From NCBI RefSeq assembly GCF_000369505.1, contig NZ_KB850055.1:62001-126000 (forward strand): a DNA stretch of 64,000 nucleotides, written 5' to 3'. Below are positions 9,376 to 60,854 of the stretch, piece by piece; the first letter of the stretch is position 1, and each line of letters begins with the position of its first letter. The translations under genes were made by a program, and so were the position numbers. Below the pieces are notes generated by a model. That model was given only the letters and a program-made list of their open reading frames with translations, did no database searches and had not been told where the DNA came from. This DNA is from Acinetobacter sp. NIPH 298 (GTDB taxonomy: Bacteria > Pseudomonadota > Gammaproteobacteria > Pseudomonadales > Moraxellaceae).

Positions 9376-12123
9376 ATGAATGCAGCACAGCTACAAAGAA
9401 CTTTAGTTGCCAGTCAGTATGCAGAGCAAGTTTTAAATTTTTATACATTACAATTAGAACAAGATTACGCTGAAGATCAATTTCTTGGTCCACTTTCGAC
9501 GGAAAGTATTTTTCAAAAAGTTCAACAGGCCATTGCAGATTTAAGTGATGAACAAGCTTGGATGAAAGCTTTGCGTGTCTTGCGTGCCAAGCTGATGTTT
9601 CGCTGGATTTGGCAAGATGCCAATCAACTGACGGATGTGGTTACCCTGACTCGTGAGCTTTCCGACTTTGCTGATGCCAGTATTTGTGCTGCGAAAGCTT
9701 TCGCACGTGTTCCATTAATTGCCAAACATGGTGAACCAATCGGTTATTCAGGTCAGGTGCAAGATCTCATAATCATCGGTATGGGCAAACTTGGTGCTCA
9801 GGAGCTTAATCTTTCTAGCGATATTGATTTGATTTTTGCTTTTGATGAACAAGGCGAAACCAATGGTCGTAAATGTATTGATGTTCAGCAGTTCTGTATT
9901 TTGTGGGGACAAAAACTGATTTATTTGCTGGATCAAATTACCGCAGATGGCTTTGTGTTTCGCGTGGATATGCGGTTACGTCCGTGGGGAGATGGTTCCG
10001 CGCTTGCGATTAGCCACATAGGTTTAGAAAAATATTTAAGTCAGCATGGTCGGGAATGGGAACGCTATGCGTGGATTAAAGCACGGGTAATTACTGGTGG
10101 CAAAGAGGGTGCAGATTTGATGGCGATGGCACGTCCTTTTGTGTTCCGTCGCTATGTCGATTATTCCGCATTTTCTGCAATGCGTGAAATGAAAGCCATG
10201 ATCGAACGTGAGGTGATGCGTCGTAATATAGAGGATGATATTAAACTGGGCGCAGGCGGGATTCGTGAAATTGAGTTTATTGTCCAAGTTTTTCAGTTGA
10301 TTTATGGTGGATCAAGACGCGAACTGCATGATCGTCAGTGCTTGGTCAATTTACAGCATTTGGGGCAGGCCGAATTACTTGATCAGCAGGCAGTGACTGA
10401 CCTAGAGGATGCTTATTTATTTTTAAGACGAGTCGAACATGCGATTCAAGCACTCAATGATCAGCAGACACAATCCTTACCGACTGAACCTGAACTCAGA
10501 CAACGTATGTTGGATACCTTGGGTTTTACGGATTGGTCATCATTTTTAAATGTGCTGAACCAGAAGCGCGATAAGGTTAAAGTCCAATTTAAACAATTGA
10601 TTCAAGAAAACGAATTTGCTGAGCCTGTTGATGATTTTGAGCAGTTGGAACAGCAACTGAATGCGGTATTAGATGATGATGCACAGAAACTAATTCAGAA
10701 CTTCTGGCATGGACAGGCCTTAAAGAAAATTCCTGCAAGTGCACTCGAACGGCTAAAGAAATTTTGGCCACATTTGATTGAAGCGATTTTACAGTCTGAT
10801 CGACCGCAAATGGCATTGTTACGTTTGATGCCCTTGGTGGAGTCGGTACTGCGCCGTACCGTGTATTTGGTCATGTTGATGGAAAGCCGTGGTGCTTTGC
10901 AACGCTTGGTGAAAATGGCAACGGTGAGCCCGTGGATTTGTGAGGAGTTAGCACAATATCCAGTATTGCTCGATGAGTTCTTATCAATGGACTTTGGTTT
11001 GCCCTTACGCAAAGACCTAGAGGACTCTCTACGGCAGCAATTACTGCGTATCGAGATTGATCAAGTTGAAGATCAAATGCGTGTGCTACGTTTATTTAAA
11101 AAGAGCAACGTTTTAACTGTTGCTGCCAGTGATGTATTGGCTGAAAGTCCATTGATGAAAGTTTCAGATGCTTTAACCGATATCGCTGAGGTCAGTGTTC
11201 AAGCCACCTTAAATCTGGCCTATCAAGCGGTTGCGCAACGACATGGTTATCCGATGGGGAGCAATGGACAGCGTTGCAGTCTGGATGTAAAAGGCTTCAC
11301 CGTGATTGGCTATGGCAAGCTCGGTGGAATTGAATTGGGCTATGGCTCTGATCTTGATTTGGTATTTATCCATGCCTTTGAAGAACAAAGTGAAACGGAT
11401 GGCAGAAAGCATATTAGTGGTGCTGAATTTGCCATTCGTGTGGCACAGAAATTTATGTCGCTCATGACCACGCAAACGCTAGATGGGCGCGTCTATGAAA
11501 TTGATACTCGTCTAAGACCGTCAGGCGAGGCGGGAATGTTGGTTACTAGCCTAAAGGCCTTTGAGCAATATCAGCAAAAACATGCATGGCTATGGGAGCA
11601 TCAAGCCTTGGTACGTGCTCGTTCGATTGCAGGTGATACACAGCTTTGTCAGCAGTTTGAAATGGTTCGGTGCAAAATCCTTACTCAAGTTCGTGATGAA
11701 AACGTAGTACGTGACGAAGTGATCAAAATGCGGCAAAAAATGAAAGATCATTTGGGTTCATCTTCTGAGCAAAAAAAACATGGCATTTTTCATTTAAAAC
11801 AGGATGCGGGTGGTATCGTTGACATAGAATTTATGGCACAGTATGCAGTGCTTGCATGGAGTGGGACGAATACAGATCTCGCCCATTTTTCCGACAATGT
11901 GAGAATTTTAGAGGATGCTGCTAAAGCAGGCTGCTTATCAAGTGAAGATGCCACAGCATTAATACAAGCTTACCTCCGTGAACGAGCTGAGAGTCACCGT
12001 TTAGCGCTTGCAAATCAATCTATGCAAGTCAATGCTGCGGATTGGCACGATACCCGCGAGATCGTTTGCAAGTTATGGCAAAGATTAGTTGATCCAAATG
12101 CAATAGCATTGGAAAGTGAATAA
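9376..12123 (+). CDS. glnE: Glutamine synthetase adenylyltransferase/adenylyl-removing enzyme
   Basis: A 915-residue two-headed enzyme that adds AMP to glutamine synthetase and removes it, under control of PII proteins. Both nucleotidyltransferase domains are visible: the N-terminal adenylyl-removing head with GMGKLGAQELNLSSDIDLIF (near residue 145) and the C-terminal adenylylating head with GYGKLGGIELGYGSDLDLVF (near 650). Each has the G-G-x11-DxD pattern. The regulatory helical linker lies between. MNAAQLQRTL at 9376 looks like the native start; an in-frame ATG at 9352 would add eight residues, and neither has a strong ribosome site. The coding end comes 25 bp before ilvE, so the two genes may be co-transcribed. 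Confidence 0.95.
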   Translation: MNAAQLQRTLVASQYAEQVLNFYTLQLEQDYAEDQFLGPLSTESIFQKVQQAIADLSDEQAWMKALRVLRAKLMFRWIWQDANQLTDVVTLTRELSDFADASICAAKAFARVPLIAKHGEPIGYSGQVQDLIIIGMGKLGAQELNLSSDIDLIFAFDEQGETNGRKCIDVQQFCILWGQKLIYLLDQITADGFVFRVDMRLRPWGDGSALAISHIGLEKYLSQHGREWERYAWIKARVITGGKEGADLMAMARPFVFRRYVDYSAFSAMREMKAMIEREVMRRNIEDDIKLGAGGIREIEFIVQVFQLIYGGSRRELHDRQCLVNLQHLGQAELLDQQAVTDLEDAYLFLRRVEHAIQALNDQQTQSLPTEPELRQRMLDTLGFTDWSSFLNVLNQKRDKVKVQFKQLIQENEFAEPVDDFEQLEQQLNAVLDDDAQKLIQNFWHGQALKKIPASALERLKKFWPHLIEAILQSDRPQMALLRLMPLVESVLRRTVYLVMLMESRGALQRLVKMATVSPWICEELAQYPVLLDEFLSMDFGLPLRKDLEDSLRQQLLRIEIDQVEDQMRVLRLFKKSNVLTVAASDVLAESPLMKVSDALTDIAEVSVQATLNLAYQAVAQRHGYPMGSNGQRCSLDVKGFTVIGYGKLGGIELGYGSDLDLVFIHAFEEQSETDGRKHISGAEFAIRVAQKFMSLMTTQTLDGRVYEIDTRLRPSGEAGMLVTSLKAFEQYQQKHAWLWEHQALVRARSIAGDTQLCQQFEMVRCKILTQVRDENVVRDEVIKMRQKMKDHLGSSSEQKKHGIFHLKQDAGGIVDIEFMAQYAVLAWSGTNTDLAHFSDNVRILEDAAKAGCLSSEDATALIQAYLRERAESHRLALANQSMQVNAADWHDTREIVCKLWQRLVDPNAIALESE

Positions 12124-12148
12124 TAGTGAAAAAAATGGAGTATGTGCG

Positions 12149-13075
12149 ATGAGTTTGGCTGATCGTGATGGTTTTATTTGGCAAGATGGAAAAATGGTTG
12201 ATTGGCGTGATGCAAAGATTCACGTCTTAACACATACACTACATTATAGTATGGGTGTGTTTGAGGGTGTTCGTGCCTATGAAACTCCGAACGGTACAGC
12301 AATCTTCCGTTTGCAAGATCACACCAAACGCTTATTAAATTCAGCAAAAATTTATCAAATGAAAGTTCCATTTGATCAAGCGACTTTAGAACAAGCACAA
12401 ATTGATGTCGTGCGTGAAAATAAATTGGTGTCATGCTATTTACGTCCATTGATTTGGATCGGTTCTGAGAAGTTAGGCATCGCGGCAACGGATAATACCG
12501 TTCATGCAGCGGTTGCGGCGTGGTCTTGGGGAACGTATCTTGGTGACGAAGCAATGGCGCACGGTATTCGTGTAAAAACGTCTTCATTTACGCATCACCA
12601 TCCAAACGTGACCATGTGTAAAGCAAAAGCTTGTGGTAACTACACAGTATCAATCTTGGCACACCAAGAAGTTGCTCGTGCGGGTTATGACGAAGCAATG
12701 CTGCTTGACCCACAAGGTTTTGTTTGCCAAGGCGCTGGTGAAAATGTCTTCTTGATCAAAGATGGCGTGTTACATACCCCAGATTTAGCAGGGGGTGCAC
12801 TTGAAGGGATTACTCGTCAAACAGTGATGACCATTGCTAAAGACCTTGGCTATGAAGTCGTAGAGCGTCGTATTACTCGTGATGAGTTTTATATTGCTGA
12901 CGAAGCATTCTTTACTGGTACTGCTGCTGAAGTAACCCCAATTCGTGAATATGATGATCGTGAAATCGGTTGTGGTTCACGTGGCCCGATCACCACTGAA
13001 ATTCAAAAGACTTTCTTTGATGCTGTTCAAGGCCGTAATGATAAATATGCGCATTGGTTGACTTATGTGAAATAA
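12149..13075 (+). CDS. ilvE: Branched-chain amino acid aminotransferase
   Basis: This 308-residue PLP enzyme performs the last step of Leu, Ile and Val synthesis. Seen: HTLHYSMGVFEGVRAYET near the N-terminus, the PLP-lysine region TMCKAKACGNYTVSILA (Lys near residue 160), GAGENVFLIKDG, GITRQTVMTIAKDLGY and FFTGTAAEVTPIREYD. All are typical of class IV aminotransferases of the IlvE type. ATG 12149 follows GGAG by 8 nt, so the longer in-frame start is rejected. A strong terminator follows. In Acinetobacter, ilvE marks one border of the LOS outer-core locus, which fits the genes found next. Confidence 0.96.
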   Translation: MSLADRDGFIWQDGKMVDWRDAKIHVLTHTLHYSMGVFEGVRAYETPNGTAIFRLQDHTKRLLNSAKIYQMKVPFDQATLEQAQIDVVRENKLVSCYLRPLIWIGSEKLGIAATDNTVHAAVAAWSWGTYLGDEAMAHGIRVKTSSFTHHHPNVTMCKAKACGNYTVSILAHQEVARAGYDEAMLLDPQGFVCQGAGENVFLIKDGVLHTPDLAGGALEGITRQTVMTIAKDLGYEVVERRITRDEFYIADEAFFTGTAAEVTPIREYDDREIGCGSRGPITTEIQKTFFDAVQGRNDKYAHWLTYVK

Positions 13076-18097: not shown

Positions 18098-18176
18098 TCA
18101 GATGTAGTGGATTCTCATTTAATTTGGCTTAAATAGTTCCTGTTGGGTGAGCAGTATTGTATTTGGATGTTTAATT

Positions 18177-20450: not shown

Positions 20451-21364
20451 ATGAAAAATTTTGTGATTAGTCTCACGTTTGCTAATCAGCGTCGCGATCA
20501 TATTCTCTCTATTTTTGAAAAACAATCGATCGAATTTAGTTTTTTTGATGCGATAACACCAATCACTCTGGAACAAGTTGCCAAGGATCTAGATTTAGAT
20601 ATTACAAAAACAGACTTAGCAAAAAGTGAAATAGCTTGTTTATTAAGTCATGCGGCATTGTGGAAAAAGGCAATTGATGAAAACCTGAGCTACATTGCTA
20701 TTTTTGAAGATGATATACATTTAGGTGAAAATGCTGATCGCTTCTTGACGAAGAGTGATTGGATACCTGAAAACTGTTCAATTGTTAAACTAGAAGCTTT
20801 TTATCCCAAAGTTGGCGTGGCTTCATCCTCCTTTAGACCATTGCCAATGGAACGTAATCTATCATCATTAAAAACGGTACATATGGGCTGTGGTGGATAT
20901 ATTTTATCTCAGCAATCAGCTCGTGAATTACTATCACTATTAAAACAGTACATATGGGCTGTGGTGGATATATTTTATCTCAGCAATCAGCTCGTGAATT
21001 ACTATCACTATTAAAACAGTACGATAAGTTAATTCCTGTCGATCATATTGTTTTTAAAGATTATATGATGAAATTCCCTGATGACATTTTTCAAATGTTA
21101 CCTGCTCTTTGTATCCAAGATCACCTATTAGCGAAGAGATATAATCTAGAGAACGAGCATAATAATTTCTCAAGTTTTTTAGAGCAAGACCGGAATATTC
21201 GTAAAGGTGAATATGAATATAAGGCTAAAAATAAGATGAAACGTAGTCTAACGCATAAAATACGAAGAGAAGGATTGCGCCCTGTTATCCAAATCATGAA
21301 GTGCTTTAAAGTGTTAGCGCGAAAGTTGAGAGGGGAGAGACTGGTAAAAGTTACATTTAAATAA
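20451..21364 (+). pseudogene. Glycosyltransferase family 25 gene, frameshifted by a 71-bp tandem duplication
   Basis: The 5' part from ATG 20451 encodes a GT25 N-terminus: FVISLTFANQRRDHILSIF, SEIACLLSHAALWKKAI and YIAIFEDDIHLGENADRF. It runs normally to LSLLKQY, then shifts frame and stops at 21014. The rest of the protein (GCGGYILSQQSARELLSLLK, DKLIPVDHIVFKDYMMKF, HLLAKRYNLENEHNN) continues in another frame to 21364. The cause is visible: bases 20880-20950 are repeated exactly at 20951-21021. Removing one 71-bp copy joins both parts into one 280-residue frame. The lesion therefore looks recent, and could revert by slippage. As it stands, the protein loses about 100 C-terminal residues. Confidence 0.9.
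20880..21021. repeat. 71-bp perfect tandem duplication inside GT25 gene
   Basis: Two identical adjacent 71-bp copies, 20880-20950 and 20951-21021. The junctions carry a short imperfect direct repeat: AAAACGGTAC ends at 20880 and AAAACAGTAC ends at 20951, with GTAC shared. This suggests that slippage or microhomology made the copy. 71 is not a multiple of 3, hence the frameshift. Confidence 0.97.
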
Positions 21365-22600: not shown

Positions 22601-24379
22601 TTAAGCTTCTTTCTTTTGTTGTTCGCGTAAACGAATACCCAAATCACGTAATTGATTTGCTTCAACTGGTGCAGGTGCTTGAGTCAATGGACATTCAGCC
22701 GTTTTGGTTTTCGGGAATGCAATCACATCACGAATCGAAGATGCGCCTGTCATTAACATCACTAGACGATCTAAACCAAATGCCAAACCACCATGTGGAG
22801 GCGCGCCATAACGTAATGCATTGAGTAAGAAGCTGAATTTCTCTTCTGCTTCTTCATCAGAAATACCTAAAGCTTCAAAGATCGCTTTTTGCATTTCTAA
22901 GTTATAAATACGCAATGAACCACCACCGACTTCAGTACCGTTGAGTACCATGTCGTAAGCAACCGAGAGTGCAGCACCTGGGTTGTTCTTCACTTCTTCA
23001 ACACTTGATTTTGGTAATGTGAATGGATGGTGAACCGAGGTCCATTTACCATCATCCGTTTCTTCAAACATTGGGAAGTCTACAACCCAAAGAGGAGCCC
23101 ACTCACACGTTGCAAGATTCAAGTCATGACCGATCTTGACACGAAGAGCACCCATCGCGTCATTGACGACTTTAGCTTTATCCGCACCAAAGAACACGAT
23201 ATCGCCATCTTGAGCGCCGACACGTTCTAACAGTTCAAGTACGATTGGCTCGATGAATTTAACGATTGGAGATTGAAGACCTTCAATACCTTTTGCCAAT
23301 TCATTGACTTTGATATATGCCAAACCTTTCGCGCCGTAGATGCCGACGAATTTGGTATATTCATCAATCGCACTACGTGGTAATGATGCTGCGCCTGGAA
23401 CACGTAAAGCAACGATACGACCTTTAGGGTCTTTAGCAGGCCCCGCGAACACTTTGAACTCAACTTCTTGCATCAGATCAGCAACATCGATGAGTTTCAA
23501 CGGAATACGCATATCAGGTTTGTCTGACGCATAATCACGCATTGCATCCGCATAAGTCATACGTTGGAATTTATCGAATTTAACACCAAGAAGTTCATCG
23601 AACATCTTCACTGTTAAGACTTCCATCAAATCCATGATGTCATCGTCACTCATGAACGATGTTTCAACGTCGATTTGGGTAAATTCAGGCTGGCGATCAG
23701 CACGCAAGTCTTCATCACGGAAGCATTTAGCGATTTGGTAGTAACGATCAATACCACCGACCATCAGTAATTGTTTAAACAATTGTGGTGATTGTGGCAG
23801 AGCGTAAAAGCTACCATTTGAAACACGGCTAGGAACGAGATAGTCACGTGCACCTTCTGGTGTTGCACGAGTGAGAATCGGTGTCTCAACGTCCAAGAAA
23901 CCATTGTCTTCGAAATAATTACGAATTAAGTTGGTTAATTTAGAACGGAAACGCAGACGGTCTAACATTTCTGGACGACGAATGTCCAAGAAACGATATT
24001 TCAAACGAATTTCTTCAGAAATATTGGTATTTTCATCATTCAAAGGGAAAGGCGGCGTTTCTGAAGCAGCAAGTACTTCAATCTCTTTGCCTAAAACTTC
24101 AATTTGACCACTCACCATATTGGCATTTTCAGTGCCTTCATAGCGGCGACGAACGCGACCAGTAATTTTTAAAACAAATTCTGAACGTGCTTTATCCGCA
24201 GTTGCAAAAGCTTCTGGGGTATCTGGATCAATGACCACTTGCACGAGACCATCGCGGTCGCGCATATCAAGGAAAATCACACCGCCATGGTCACGGCGAC
24301 GATGAACCCAACCACATAAAGTTACGGTTTGATCGATTTGGGCTTCAGTTAAAGAGCCACAGTAATGAGTGCGCATCAT
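22601..24379 (-). CDS. aspS: Aspartyl-tRNA synthetase
   Basis: 592 residues, the bacterial-type length. Seen: the N-terminal OB fold with [20 protein letters not shown] (anticodon binding); class II motif 2 around [20 protein letters not shown] (residues about 213-232); the bacterial GAD insertion in the middle; and class II motif 3, [20 protein letters not shown], near the C-terminus. It charges tRNA-Asp in the cytoplasm. In Acinetobacter it is the conserved right border of the LOS outer-core locus, with ilvE as the left border. Codon use is typical of a highly expressed gene, unlike the AT-rich glycosyltransferases next to it. Confidence 0.98.
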
Positions 24380-25409: not shown

Positions 25410-27488
<2,079 letters not shown>

Positions 27489-59784: not shown

Positions 59785-60854
59785 ATAACAAACAACGCTG
59801 GATGGGCGGCGTTGTTTTACTTGGAGGTGGTGTTTTATTGGCAGCATTACTTCTCAAAGGTAATGAAGAAATAGAACAAGACAAGACACAGACTCAGATT
59901 GAACACCCAAGTGCTCAAACTGAGTCTAAACCAAAACTTGCACAGCCTGCGCAAGACAGTGAAATGGTATCGTTACAACCCATGGCTGTTGACATTGAAA
60001 CCGAAAAACGTCTGCTTGAAGAGCAGCGCCAAGCGCGTGAAAAAGCCGTTGCTGAACAAGAAGCGCTTGCTGCTGATTTTTTAAAGATGCAACAAGAAGC
60101 AGAAGCTGCTGCAGCACGTAAGGCAGCGGAGGAATATGCTGCAATTAATGCCCGTCGAAATGCTGCACAAGAAAGCTCGGATAATATTCCACCAGAGTTG
60201 ATTGAAGATGACAAAGTCAAAGCACAACGACTTGCGGAAGAAAAGCGTAAGTTAGAAGAGAAGCGTAAAGCGGACGCAGACAAGAAAGCCGCTGATGATA
60301 AACGTAAAGCGGACGCAGACAAGAAAGCTGCTGAAGATAAACGTAAAGCGGAAGCGGACAAGAAAGCTGCTGAAGATAAACGTAAAGCGGAAGCAGACAA
60401 GAAAGCTGCCGAAGATAAACGTAAAGCGGAAGCAGATAAGAAAGCTGCCGAAGATAAACGTAAAGCGGAAGCCGATAAGAAAGCTGCCGAAGATAAGCGT
60501 AAAGCCGAAGCAGACAAGAAAGCTGCTGATGAAAAACGCAAAGCCGAAGAAGATGCGAAGAAGAAAGCAGATGCTGAAAAGGCACGCGAACTTTTGGAAA
60601 ATGGCGACAAGAACTGGATGGTACAAGTGGCTTTGGCTGCAAACCAAGCCAATGCAGATGCCGTAGTATCCAAGTTGCGAGCGAAAGGCTATAAAGTTAC
60701 AACTAGCCCAACCTCTAAAGGGATTCGCATCATGGTTGGTCCATCCAAAGACAGAGAAACTGCGGATGCCGCGCGTAAGAAAATTGCTGCAGATGAAAGT
60801 TTAAATATGAAATCAGCTTGGGTGATTGACTGGGTGCCACTCGAACAGCGCTAA
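59781..60854 (+). CDS. SPOR-domain membrane protein with repeated charged helix
   Basis: 357 residues from ATG 59781 (ATGA overlap with folC); ATG 59775 is also possible. One N-terminal membrane helix, WMGGVVLLGGGVLLAALLLK, then a long periplasmic rod: Gln/Glu/Ala-rich, followed by seven perfect-length copies of a 13-residue unit (KRKAEADKKAAED type, 60261-60533), TolA-like. The last 80 residues form a SPOR domain (NWMVQVALAANQANADAVVS, LRAKGYKVTTSPTSKGIRIM, VGPSKDRETADAARKKIAAD), which binds septal denuded peptidoglycan. It corresponds in place to DedD of E. coli. Role in cell division is a family-based inference. Confidence 0.9.
   Translation: MNNKQRWMGGVVLLGGGVLLAALLLKGNEEIEQDKTQTQIEHPSAQTESKPKLAQPAQDSEMVSLQPMAVDIETEKRLLEEQRQAREKAVAEQEALAADFLKMQQEAEAAAARKAAEEYAAINARRNAAQESSDNIPPELIEDDKVKAQRLAEEKRKLEEKRKADADKKAADDKRKADADKKAAEDKRKAEADKKAAEDKRKAEADKKAAEDKRKAEADKKAAEDKRKAEADKKAAEDKRKAEADKKAADEKRKAEEDAKKKADAEKARELLENGDKNWMVQVALAANQANADAVVSKLRAKGYKVTTSPTSKGIRIMVGPSKDRETADAARKKIAADESLNMKSAWVIDWVPLEQR
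60261..60533 (+). repeat. Seven tandem 39-bp repeats in the SPOR gene
   Basis: Seven contiguous 39-bp units, each coding 13 residues (KRKA[DE]ADKKAA[DE][DE]). Sequence identity between units is high but with synonymous differences, so the array is partly diverged. Copy-number change keeps the frame and alters only rod length. Confidence 0.95.

What the first reader, a model, noticed from the sequence alone, without database searches (positions are those of the whole stretch)
20451..21364. GT25 gene switched off by a perfect 71-bp tandem duplication
Bases 20880-20950 are repeated without change at 20951-21021. The duplication shifts the frame, and removing one copy restores a single 280-residue GT25 protein. 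The copies are identical, so the event is recent. An imperfect 10-bp direct repeat (AAAACGGTAC/AAAACAGTAC) sits at the junctions, so RecA-independent slippage could both create and delete the extra copy. This would be an on/off switch for one LOS sugar.
Basis: seen in the sequence. Interest (0 to 1): 0.78.

Follow-up and report, generated by a model that had tools for sequence, protein, structure and literature searches.

The report
Recent duplication breaks sugar-transferase gene
An exact 71-base tandem duplication breaks the reading frame of a predicted sugar-adding gene in an Acinetobacter surface-sugar cluster; it likely arose recently by copying slippage, likely inactivates the enzyme and could in principle be lost again, but it looks like a one-off mutation rather than a built-in on/off switch.

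Summary
Bases 20880-20950 equal 20951-21021 exactly; the perfect period-71 run is 20877-21022. The gene is a GT25 (PF01755) glycosyltransferase in the ilvE-aspS outer-core (OC) LOS locus of an Acinetobacter. The native frame ends after residue 167 with 20 foreign residues; a 136-codon tail stays open in another frame. The lost tail holds 4 of 28 invariant family columns and, in a model of the A. halotolerans orthologue, a helix and two strands of the fold, so inactivation is likely. A database allele (P0002) is unbroken and differs by 1 of 143 residues before the break and 0 of 136 after it. A. halotolerans and A. haemolyticus are single-copy and intact; 56 GT25 matches in 38 other congeneric genomes show no comparable break. 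So the event is likely recent and not fixed. A 9/10 direct repeat at the junction (0.2% by chance) fits slipped-strand duplication. The 'switch' half is not supported: the repeat is absent from those two orthologues, the gene is not unusually repeat-rich, and no population data were available. Best reading: a recent, in principle revertible, null allele of a known kind (compare pneumococcal capsule genes). Assembly error cannot be excluded without reads.

The parts
20451..21364 (+). GT25 glycosyltransferase gene of the outer-core LOS locus, interrupted by the duplication
   Evidence: PF01755 140.6 bits (cut-off 24) for the 5' piece; orthologues in A. halotolerans and A. haemolyticus
20451..21014 (+). 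5' open reading frame: 167 native residues, then 20 out-of-frame residues and a stop
20880..20950 (+). copy 1 of the 71-bp unit
20951..21021 (+). copy 2 of the 71-bp unit, identical to copy 1
   Evidence: perfect period-71 run 20877-21022
20871..20880 (+). left arm of the imperfect direct repeat (9 of 10 match)
20942..20951 (+). junction arm of the direct repeat; repeated exactly at 21013-21022
20954..21364 (+). 3' remainder, open in another frame, 136 codons from an ATG inside copy 2; its product is identical to the tail of the intact allele P0002
12116..13075 (+). ilvE, one boundary of the OC locus
   Evidence: TIGR01122 426.7 bits
22601..24379 (-). aspS, other boundary of the OC locus
   Evidence: TIGR00459 795.2 bits
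16364..17122 (+). second GT25 gene of the locus, intact
   Evidence: PF01755 86.2 bits; the three PF01755 rows in the own genome are this gene and the two halves of the broken one

Best explanation
An exact 71-bp tandem duplication, likely made by slipped-strand mispairing at a short imperfect direct repeat, shifts the frame of a predicted GT25 glycosyltransferase gene in the outer-core LOS locus and likely makes it a recent null allele that could revert by losing one copy. Shown: the duplication, the frame break, the locus, and an otherwise near-identical unbroken allele elsewhere. Inferred: origin by slippage; loss of activity because the truncated product lacks a conserved part of the catalytic fold; one outer-core sugar (perhaps galactose, after the nearest solved relatives) missing from LOS; a low reversion rate as for any perfect tandem repeat of this size. 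It is most likely a spontaneous mutation carried by this isolate, by chance or under selection such as phage or laboratory passage, not an evolved switch.
For: Identity of copies and frame break. P0002: 1 difference of 143 residues before the break, 0 of 136 after it, unbroken. A. halotolerans and A. haemolyticus single-copy and intact; BLAST places one stretch of each twice on the window. Of 149 congeneric genomes searched, 39 (the own one included) had a GT25 match; the 56 rows from the 38 others all have open frames of 253 aa or more, and the one flagged TAA (G078) belongs to an intact 264-aa ORF. A 9/10 match abutting the junction occurs at 0.2% of random 71-bp offsets in the window, perfect microhomology of 4 bp or more at 2.0%. 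Lost tail: 4 of 28 invariant and 7 of 29 nearly invariant columns in 34 aligned proteins, among them the Asp of PVD that aligns with human COLGALT1; the model of the A. halotolerans orthologue (pLDDT 90.9) puts helix 172-183 and strands 188-192 and 196-198 in the lost part. Nearest folds are entries titled beta-1,4-galactosyltransferase, such as 8xgx (E 4.2e-20).
Against: No reads: assembly error not excluded. No same-species genome of known source: P0002's source is withheld, so allele polymorphism rests on one protein cluster. The truncated ORF still covers profile positions 3-196 of 199 of PF01755, so complete inactivity is not proven. dN/dS of the tail is 0.149 against A. halotolerans and 0.126 against A. 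haemolyticus, higher than between these two (0.063), which could hint at relaxed constraint; but P0002 shares that tail, so it likely predates the duplication. The single-strand fold of the unit is only mildly stable (z -2.07).
Confidence: 0.62

Rival explanations
1. A true contingency switch: the 71-bp unit is gained and lost often enough to alternate LOS forms within the population.
For: Perfect tandem copies, out-of-frame unit, imperfect repeat at the junction, a surface-glycan gene, a single-copy allele in existence. Another genome's GT25 orthologue carries a different, in-frame 24-bp tandem duplication (L037), so such events recur in this gene family. Precedent in pneumococcal capsule genes (PMC4022640 passages and reference titles).
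Against: Junction repeat not shared by the A. halotolerans and A. haemolyticus orthologues; only three separate 9/10 pairs at 20-200 bp in the 5' 501 bp, in line with other stretches of the window; no second genome with this duplication seen.
Confidence: 0.13
2. Assembly or polishing artefact: the genome has one copy.
For: No reads available; the intact allele is otherwise almost identical; a 146-bp perfect run is close to short-read length.
Against: Assemblers more often collapse repeats than invent them (general knowledge); the only perfect chromosomal tandem duplication of unit 20 bp or more in the 413 kb of this assembly that I scanned; junction microhomology is biologically typical (general knowledge); the genome is in 4 contigs.
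Confidence: 0.15
3. First step of ordinary gene decay: a fixed loss of this outer-core sugar, alongside the already deleted OC acyltransferase.
For: The acyltransferase of A. halotolerans (L016:3741-5666) is gone from the window, with a 57-bp match left at 18116-18172, so this locus is losing decoration genes.
Against: No second break in the gene; the tail is identical to that of the intact allele.
Confidence: 0.08
4. The two-copy gene still makes a working, altered enzyme (truncated product, or re-initiation at the ATG in copy 2).
For: PF01755 nearly covered by the 5' ORF; the 3' ORF has its own ATG.
Against: Conserved tail residues and fold elements missing from the 5' product; no clear ribosome-binding site before 20954 (by eye).
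Confidence: 0.02

Closest known systems
Spontaneous sequence duplications in pneumococcal capsule genes (type 3 locus, cap8E/wchA, tts; Waite et al. 2001, 2003)
   Same: Tandem duplication inside a surface-glycan synthesis gene abolishes the product; the titles of both papers tie such duplications to phase variation.
   Different: There switching was studied; here only one state is seen, in a Gram-negative LOS gene. The Waite papers were seen only as references and one sentence in PMC4022640 (passages), which itself found one short duplication and no fixed pattern among wchA mutants; other details are recalled.
IS-interrupted OC loci of Acinetobacter baumannii (PMC4110982, abstract and opening text; PMC4172580, passages)
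   Same: Loss of one OC-locus gene in single isolates; shorter LOS was shown in PMC4110982.
   Different: Caused by insertion sequences, in A. baumannii; here by a 71-bp tandem duplication in another species, LOS untested.
gtr6 frameshifts in the A. baumannii K3 capsule (PMC9927144, passages)
   Same: Slippage-type frameshift in a glycosyltransferase gene removes a sugar; the authors raise, without testing, that it may be reversible.
   Different: Single-base loss in A-tracts of a capsule gene, with the loss of the sugar shown.

Membership tests
GT25 / PF01755 glycosyltransferase | Profile match above the curated cut-off | tested here: met
   5' ORF 140.6 bits vs 24; the 3' piece alone 20.0, below the cut-off
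GT25 / PF01755 glycosyltransferase | EDD and the C-terminal invariant residues (D, Q, P, Q) in one polypeptide | tested here: not met
   EDD in the 5' ORF, the tail residues only in the other frame; hence a broken member
Acinetobacter OC locus | Glycosyltransferase cluster between ilvE and aspS | tested here: met
   definition from PMC4110982 and the PMC4172580 abstract listing
Slippage-made tandem duplication | Short direct repeat at the junction | tested here: met
   9/10 match, 4 bp perfect; 0.2% and 2.0% by chance
Phase-variable (contingency) gene | Both states present, reversible and frequent, in one clone | not testable with these tools
   no reads or colonies
Phase-variable (contingency) gene | Repeat kept across relatives | tested here: not met
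   junction repeat absent in L016 and L017, the two orthologues compared
Phase-variable (contingency) gene | A one-copy allele exists | tested here: met
   P0002

The most novel reading that the evidence does not exclude
A naturally occurring, reversible 71-bp duplication switch in the LOS outer core of an Acinetobacter: cells drop or regain a terminal sugar by slippage at a lineage-specific 10-bp repeat, giving phase variation without any simple-sequence tract.
Probability: 0.13. Interest if true: 0.5.

Novelty: new member of a known kind. Interest (0 to 1): 0.27.

Why it matters
If real, it is a clear natural example of how a short chance repeat can make a possibly reversible loss of a surface sugar in Acinetobacter, a kind of variation that scans for simple-repeat tracts would miss. 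It could bear on phage sensitivity and LOS typing. As it stands it is one allele in one assembly.

Tried and rejected
Conserved hypermutable site: rejected, since A. halotolerans and A. haemolyticus lack the second repeat arm. Exceptional hotspot: not found; the 5' 501 bp hold 7 overlapping 10-mer pairs of 9/10 or better at 20-200 bp, forming 3 separate pairs, against 1-15 such pairs in 25 of 26 sampled 501-bp stretches of the window (one of them overlaps the gene by 51 bases) and 491 in the remaining one, which lies in the 39-bp repeat region. Second broken gene: G078 was flagged with a TAA, but its ORF is intact, 264 aa. Ongoing decay: the tail dN/dS is higher than between the two relatives, but the intact allele shares the tail; dS against A. 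haemolyticus is near saturation. Hairpin-driven slippage: weak, z -2.07. Promoters: 5 found where shuffles give 5.5; terminators: none. A viral-contig scan with a pattern across the copy junction gave no match, as expected for a chromosomal gene.

Papers. Searches for tandem-duplication phase variation in glycan genes, in Acinetobacter and in general (1 paper; 33, 20 listed; 136, 15 listed; 32, 12 listed) listed no title or abstract start on such a case in Acinetobacter LOS; the library holds only openly licensed papers and lists were cut, so this is no proof of absence. Passages of the phase-variation review PMC11868660 hold no 'duplication' or 'tandem'; PMC12892936 passages describe IS-driven capsule loss in A. 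baumannii; in PMC12054119 the tandem duplication is 11 kb and not in a glycosyltransferase (passages). Searches gave nothing used.

Full report
What is there. The window lies in an Acinetobacter genome: the A. halotolerans protein P0003 matches genome G112 at 100%, which is listed as the same genus as the window's genome. Between ilvE (12116-13075) and aspS (22601-24379) lies a cluster with a nucleotide-sugar dehydrogenase, a Stealth-type protein, two GT25 genes, a Caps_synth protein, a protein weakly like WaaZ (57.6 bits, cut-off 200), a lipid A acyltransferase-like protein and two proteins without a match. This is the position and make-up of the outer-core (OC) LOS locus as defined for A. 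baumannii (PMC4110982, abstract and opening text; PMC4172580, passages, where five OC glycosyltransferases are listed with Glyco_transf_25).

The duplication. Bases 20880-20950 and 20951-21021 are identical; the perfect run is 20877-21022. Because 71 is not a multiple of three, the frame from the ATG at 20451 runs for 167 native residues and 20 foreign ones to a stop at 21012-21014, and the rest of the gene is open in another frame.

Is it recent? The two copies have no difference. The database protein P0002 (287 aa, 10 member sequences in its cluster, source withheld) is unbroken, differs from the window at 1 of 143 residues before the break and is identical over the 136 residues of the tail. 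The orthologues in A. halotolerans and A. haemolyticus are single-copy and intact, and BLAST maps the same stretch of each twice onto the window. In a genus sample of 149 genomes, 39 including the own one had GT25 matches at E <= 1e-20, 58 rows in all; 2 rows are the halves of the window's gene and 56 come from 38 other genomes. None of the 56 shows a comparable break: their open frames are 253 aa or longer, and the one flagged stop proved to be an intact ORF. Many of these 56 are distant (36-50% identity) and some are paralogues, so they speak about GT25 genes in general.

How it arose. The arms AAAACGGTAC and AAAACAGTAC match at 9 of 10 bases and abut the junction; such a match occurs at 0.2% of random 71-bp offsets in the window. 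This fits slipped-strand mispairing (inference). The repeat is particular to this lineage as far as seen: in the two orthologues the second arm is not alike. In 413,173 bases of the genome no other perfect chromosomal tandem duplication with a unit of 20-999 bp was found; a 22-bp pair lies on the small contig C4. In 435,889 bases of loci from other genomes (some overlapping) the same scan, units 20-499, found one more perfect pair besides a simple GGTT run: an in-frame 24-bp duplication at the 3' end of another genome's GT25 orthologue (L037). So tandem duplications do occur elsewhere in this family, at other places.

What it does. The 5' product still covers most of PF01755 but lacks 4 of 28 invariant and 7 of 29 nearly invariant columns of an alignment of 34 of the 120 listed homologues (of 159 found; alignment), including the Asp of the PVD motif that aligns with human COLGALT1. 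In the model of P0003 (pLDDT 90.9) the missing part holds a helix, two strands and the C-terminal helices. In most inverting GT-A enzymes the catalytic base lies in an xED motif on helix F (PMC7185993, passages); that the GT25 PVD is its counterpart is my inference. The nearest solved structures are GT25 entries titled beta-1,4-galactosyltransferase, and COLGALT1, so galactose is the likeliest sugar, but the donor is not shown. In A. baumannii, IS insertions in the OC locus shorten LOS (PMC4110982), which makes a shorter LOS likely here.

Switch or accident? A perfect 71-bp tandem duplication can be lost by slippage or recombination at a low rate (general knowledge, recalled), and in pneumococcus such duplications in capsule genes are tied to phase variation (PMC4022640, passages and the titles of Waite et al. 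in its reference list). But nothing here shows two states in one clone, and the repeat is not conserved. I therefore read it as a recent null allele that happens to be revertible.

Limits. No reads, no colonies, no same-species genomes of known source. Two results lean the other way: the tail has a higher dN/dS against A. halotolerans (0.149) and A. haemolyticus (0.126) than these two have between them (0.063), although the intact allele shares it; and the truncated product keeps most of the Pfam domain.

Noticed in passing
window 18116-18172: 57-bp match (82%) to an OC acyltransferase gene (PF01757 plus SGNH) that is whole in A. halotolerans (L016:3741-5666) and in two pieces around a transposase-like ORF (by eye) in A. 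haemolyticus (L017); the window has lost the gene.
   Followed up: partly
L037:1480-1529: In another Acinetobacter genome (G164) the GT25 orthologue carries a perfect 24-bp in-frame tandem duplication at its 3' end (QGERVVRI twice); the same residues are doubled in proteins P0005 and P0008.
   Followed up: partly
window 26289-26320: GACCAC repeated 5.3 times in a ZnuD zinc receptor gene, coding for a His/Asp tract; the tract differs in A. halotolerans and A. haemolyticus.
   Followed up: no
window 60255-60553: 39-bp, 7.7-copy repeat; its consensus unit reads as Lys/Ala/Glu-rich, TolA-like by eye.
   Followed up: no
L082:768-811 (contig C4, 9173 bp): Perfect 22-bp direct pair on a small contig, perhaps plasmid iterons.
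   Followed up: no
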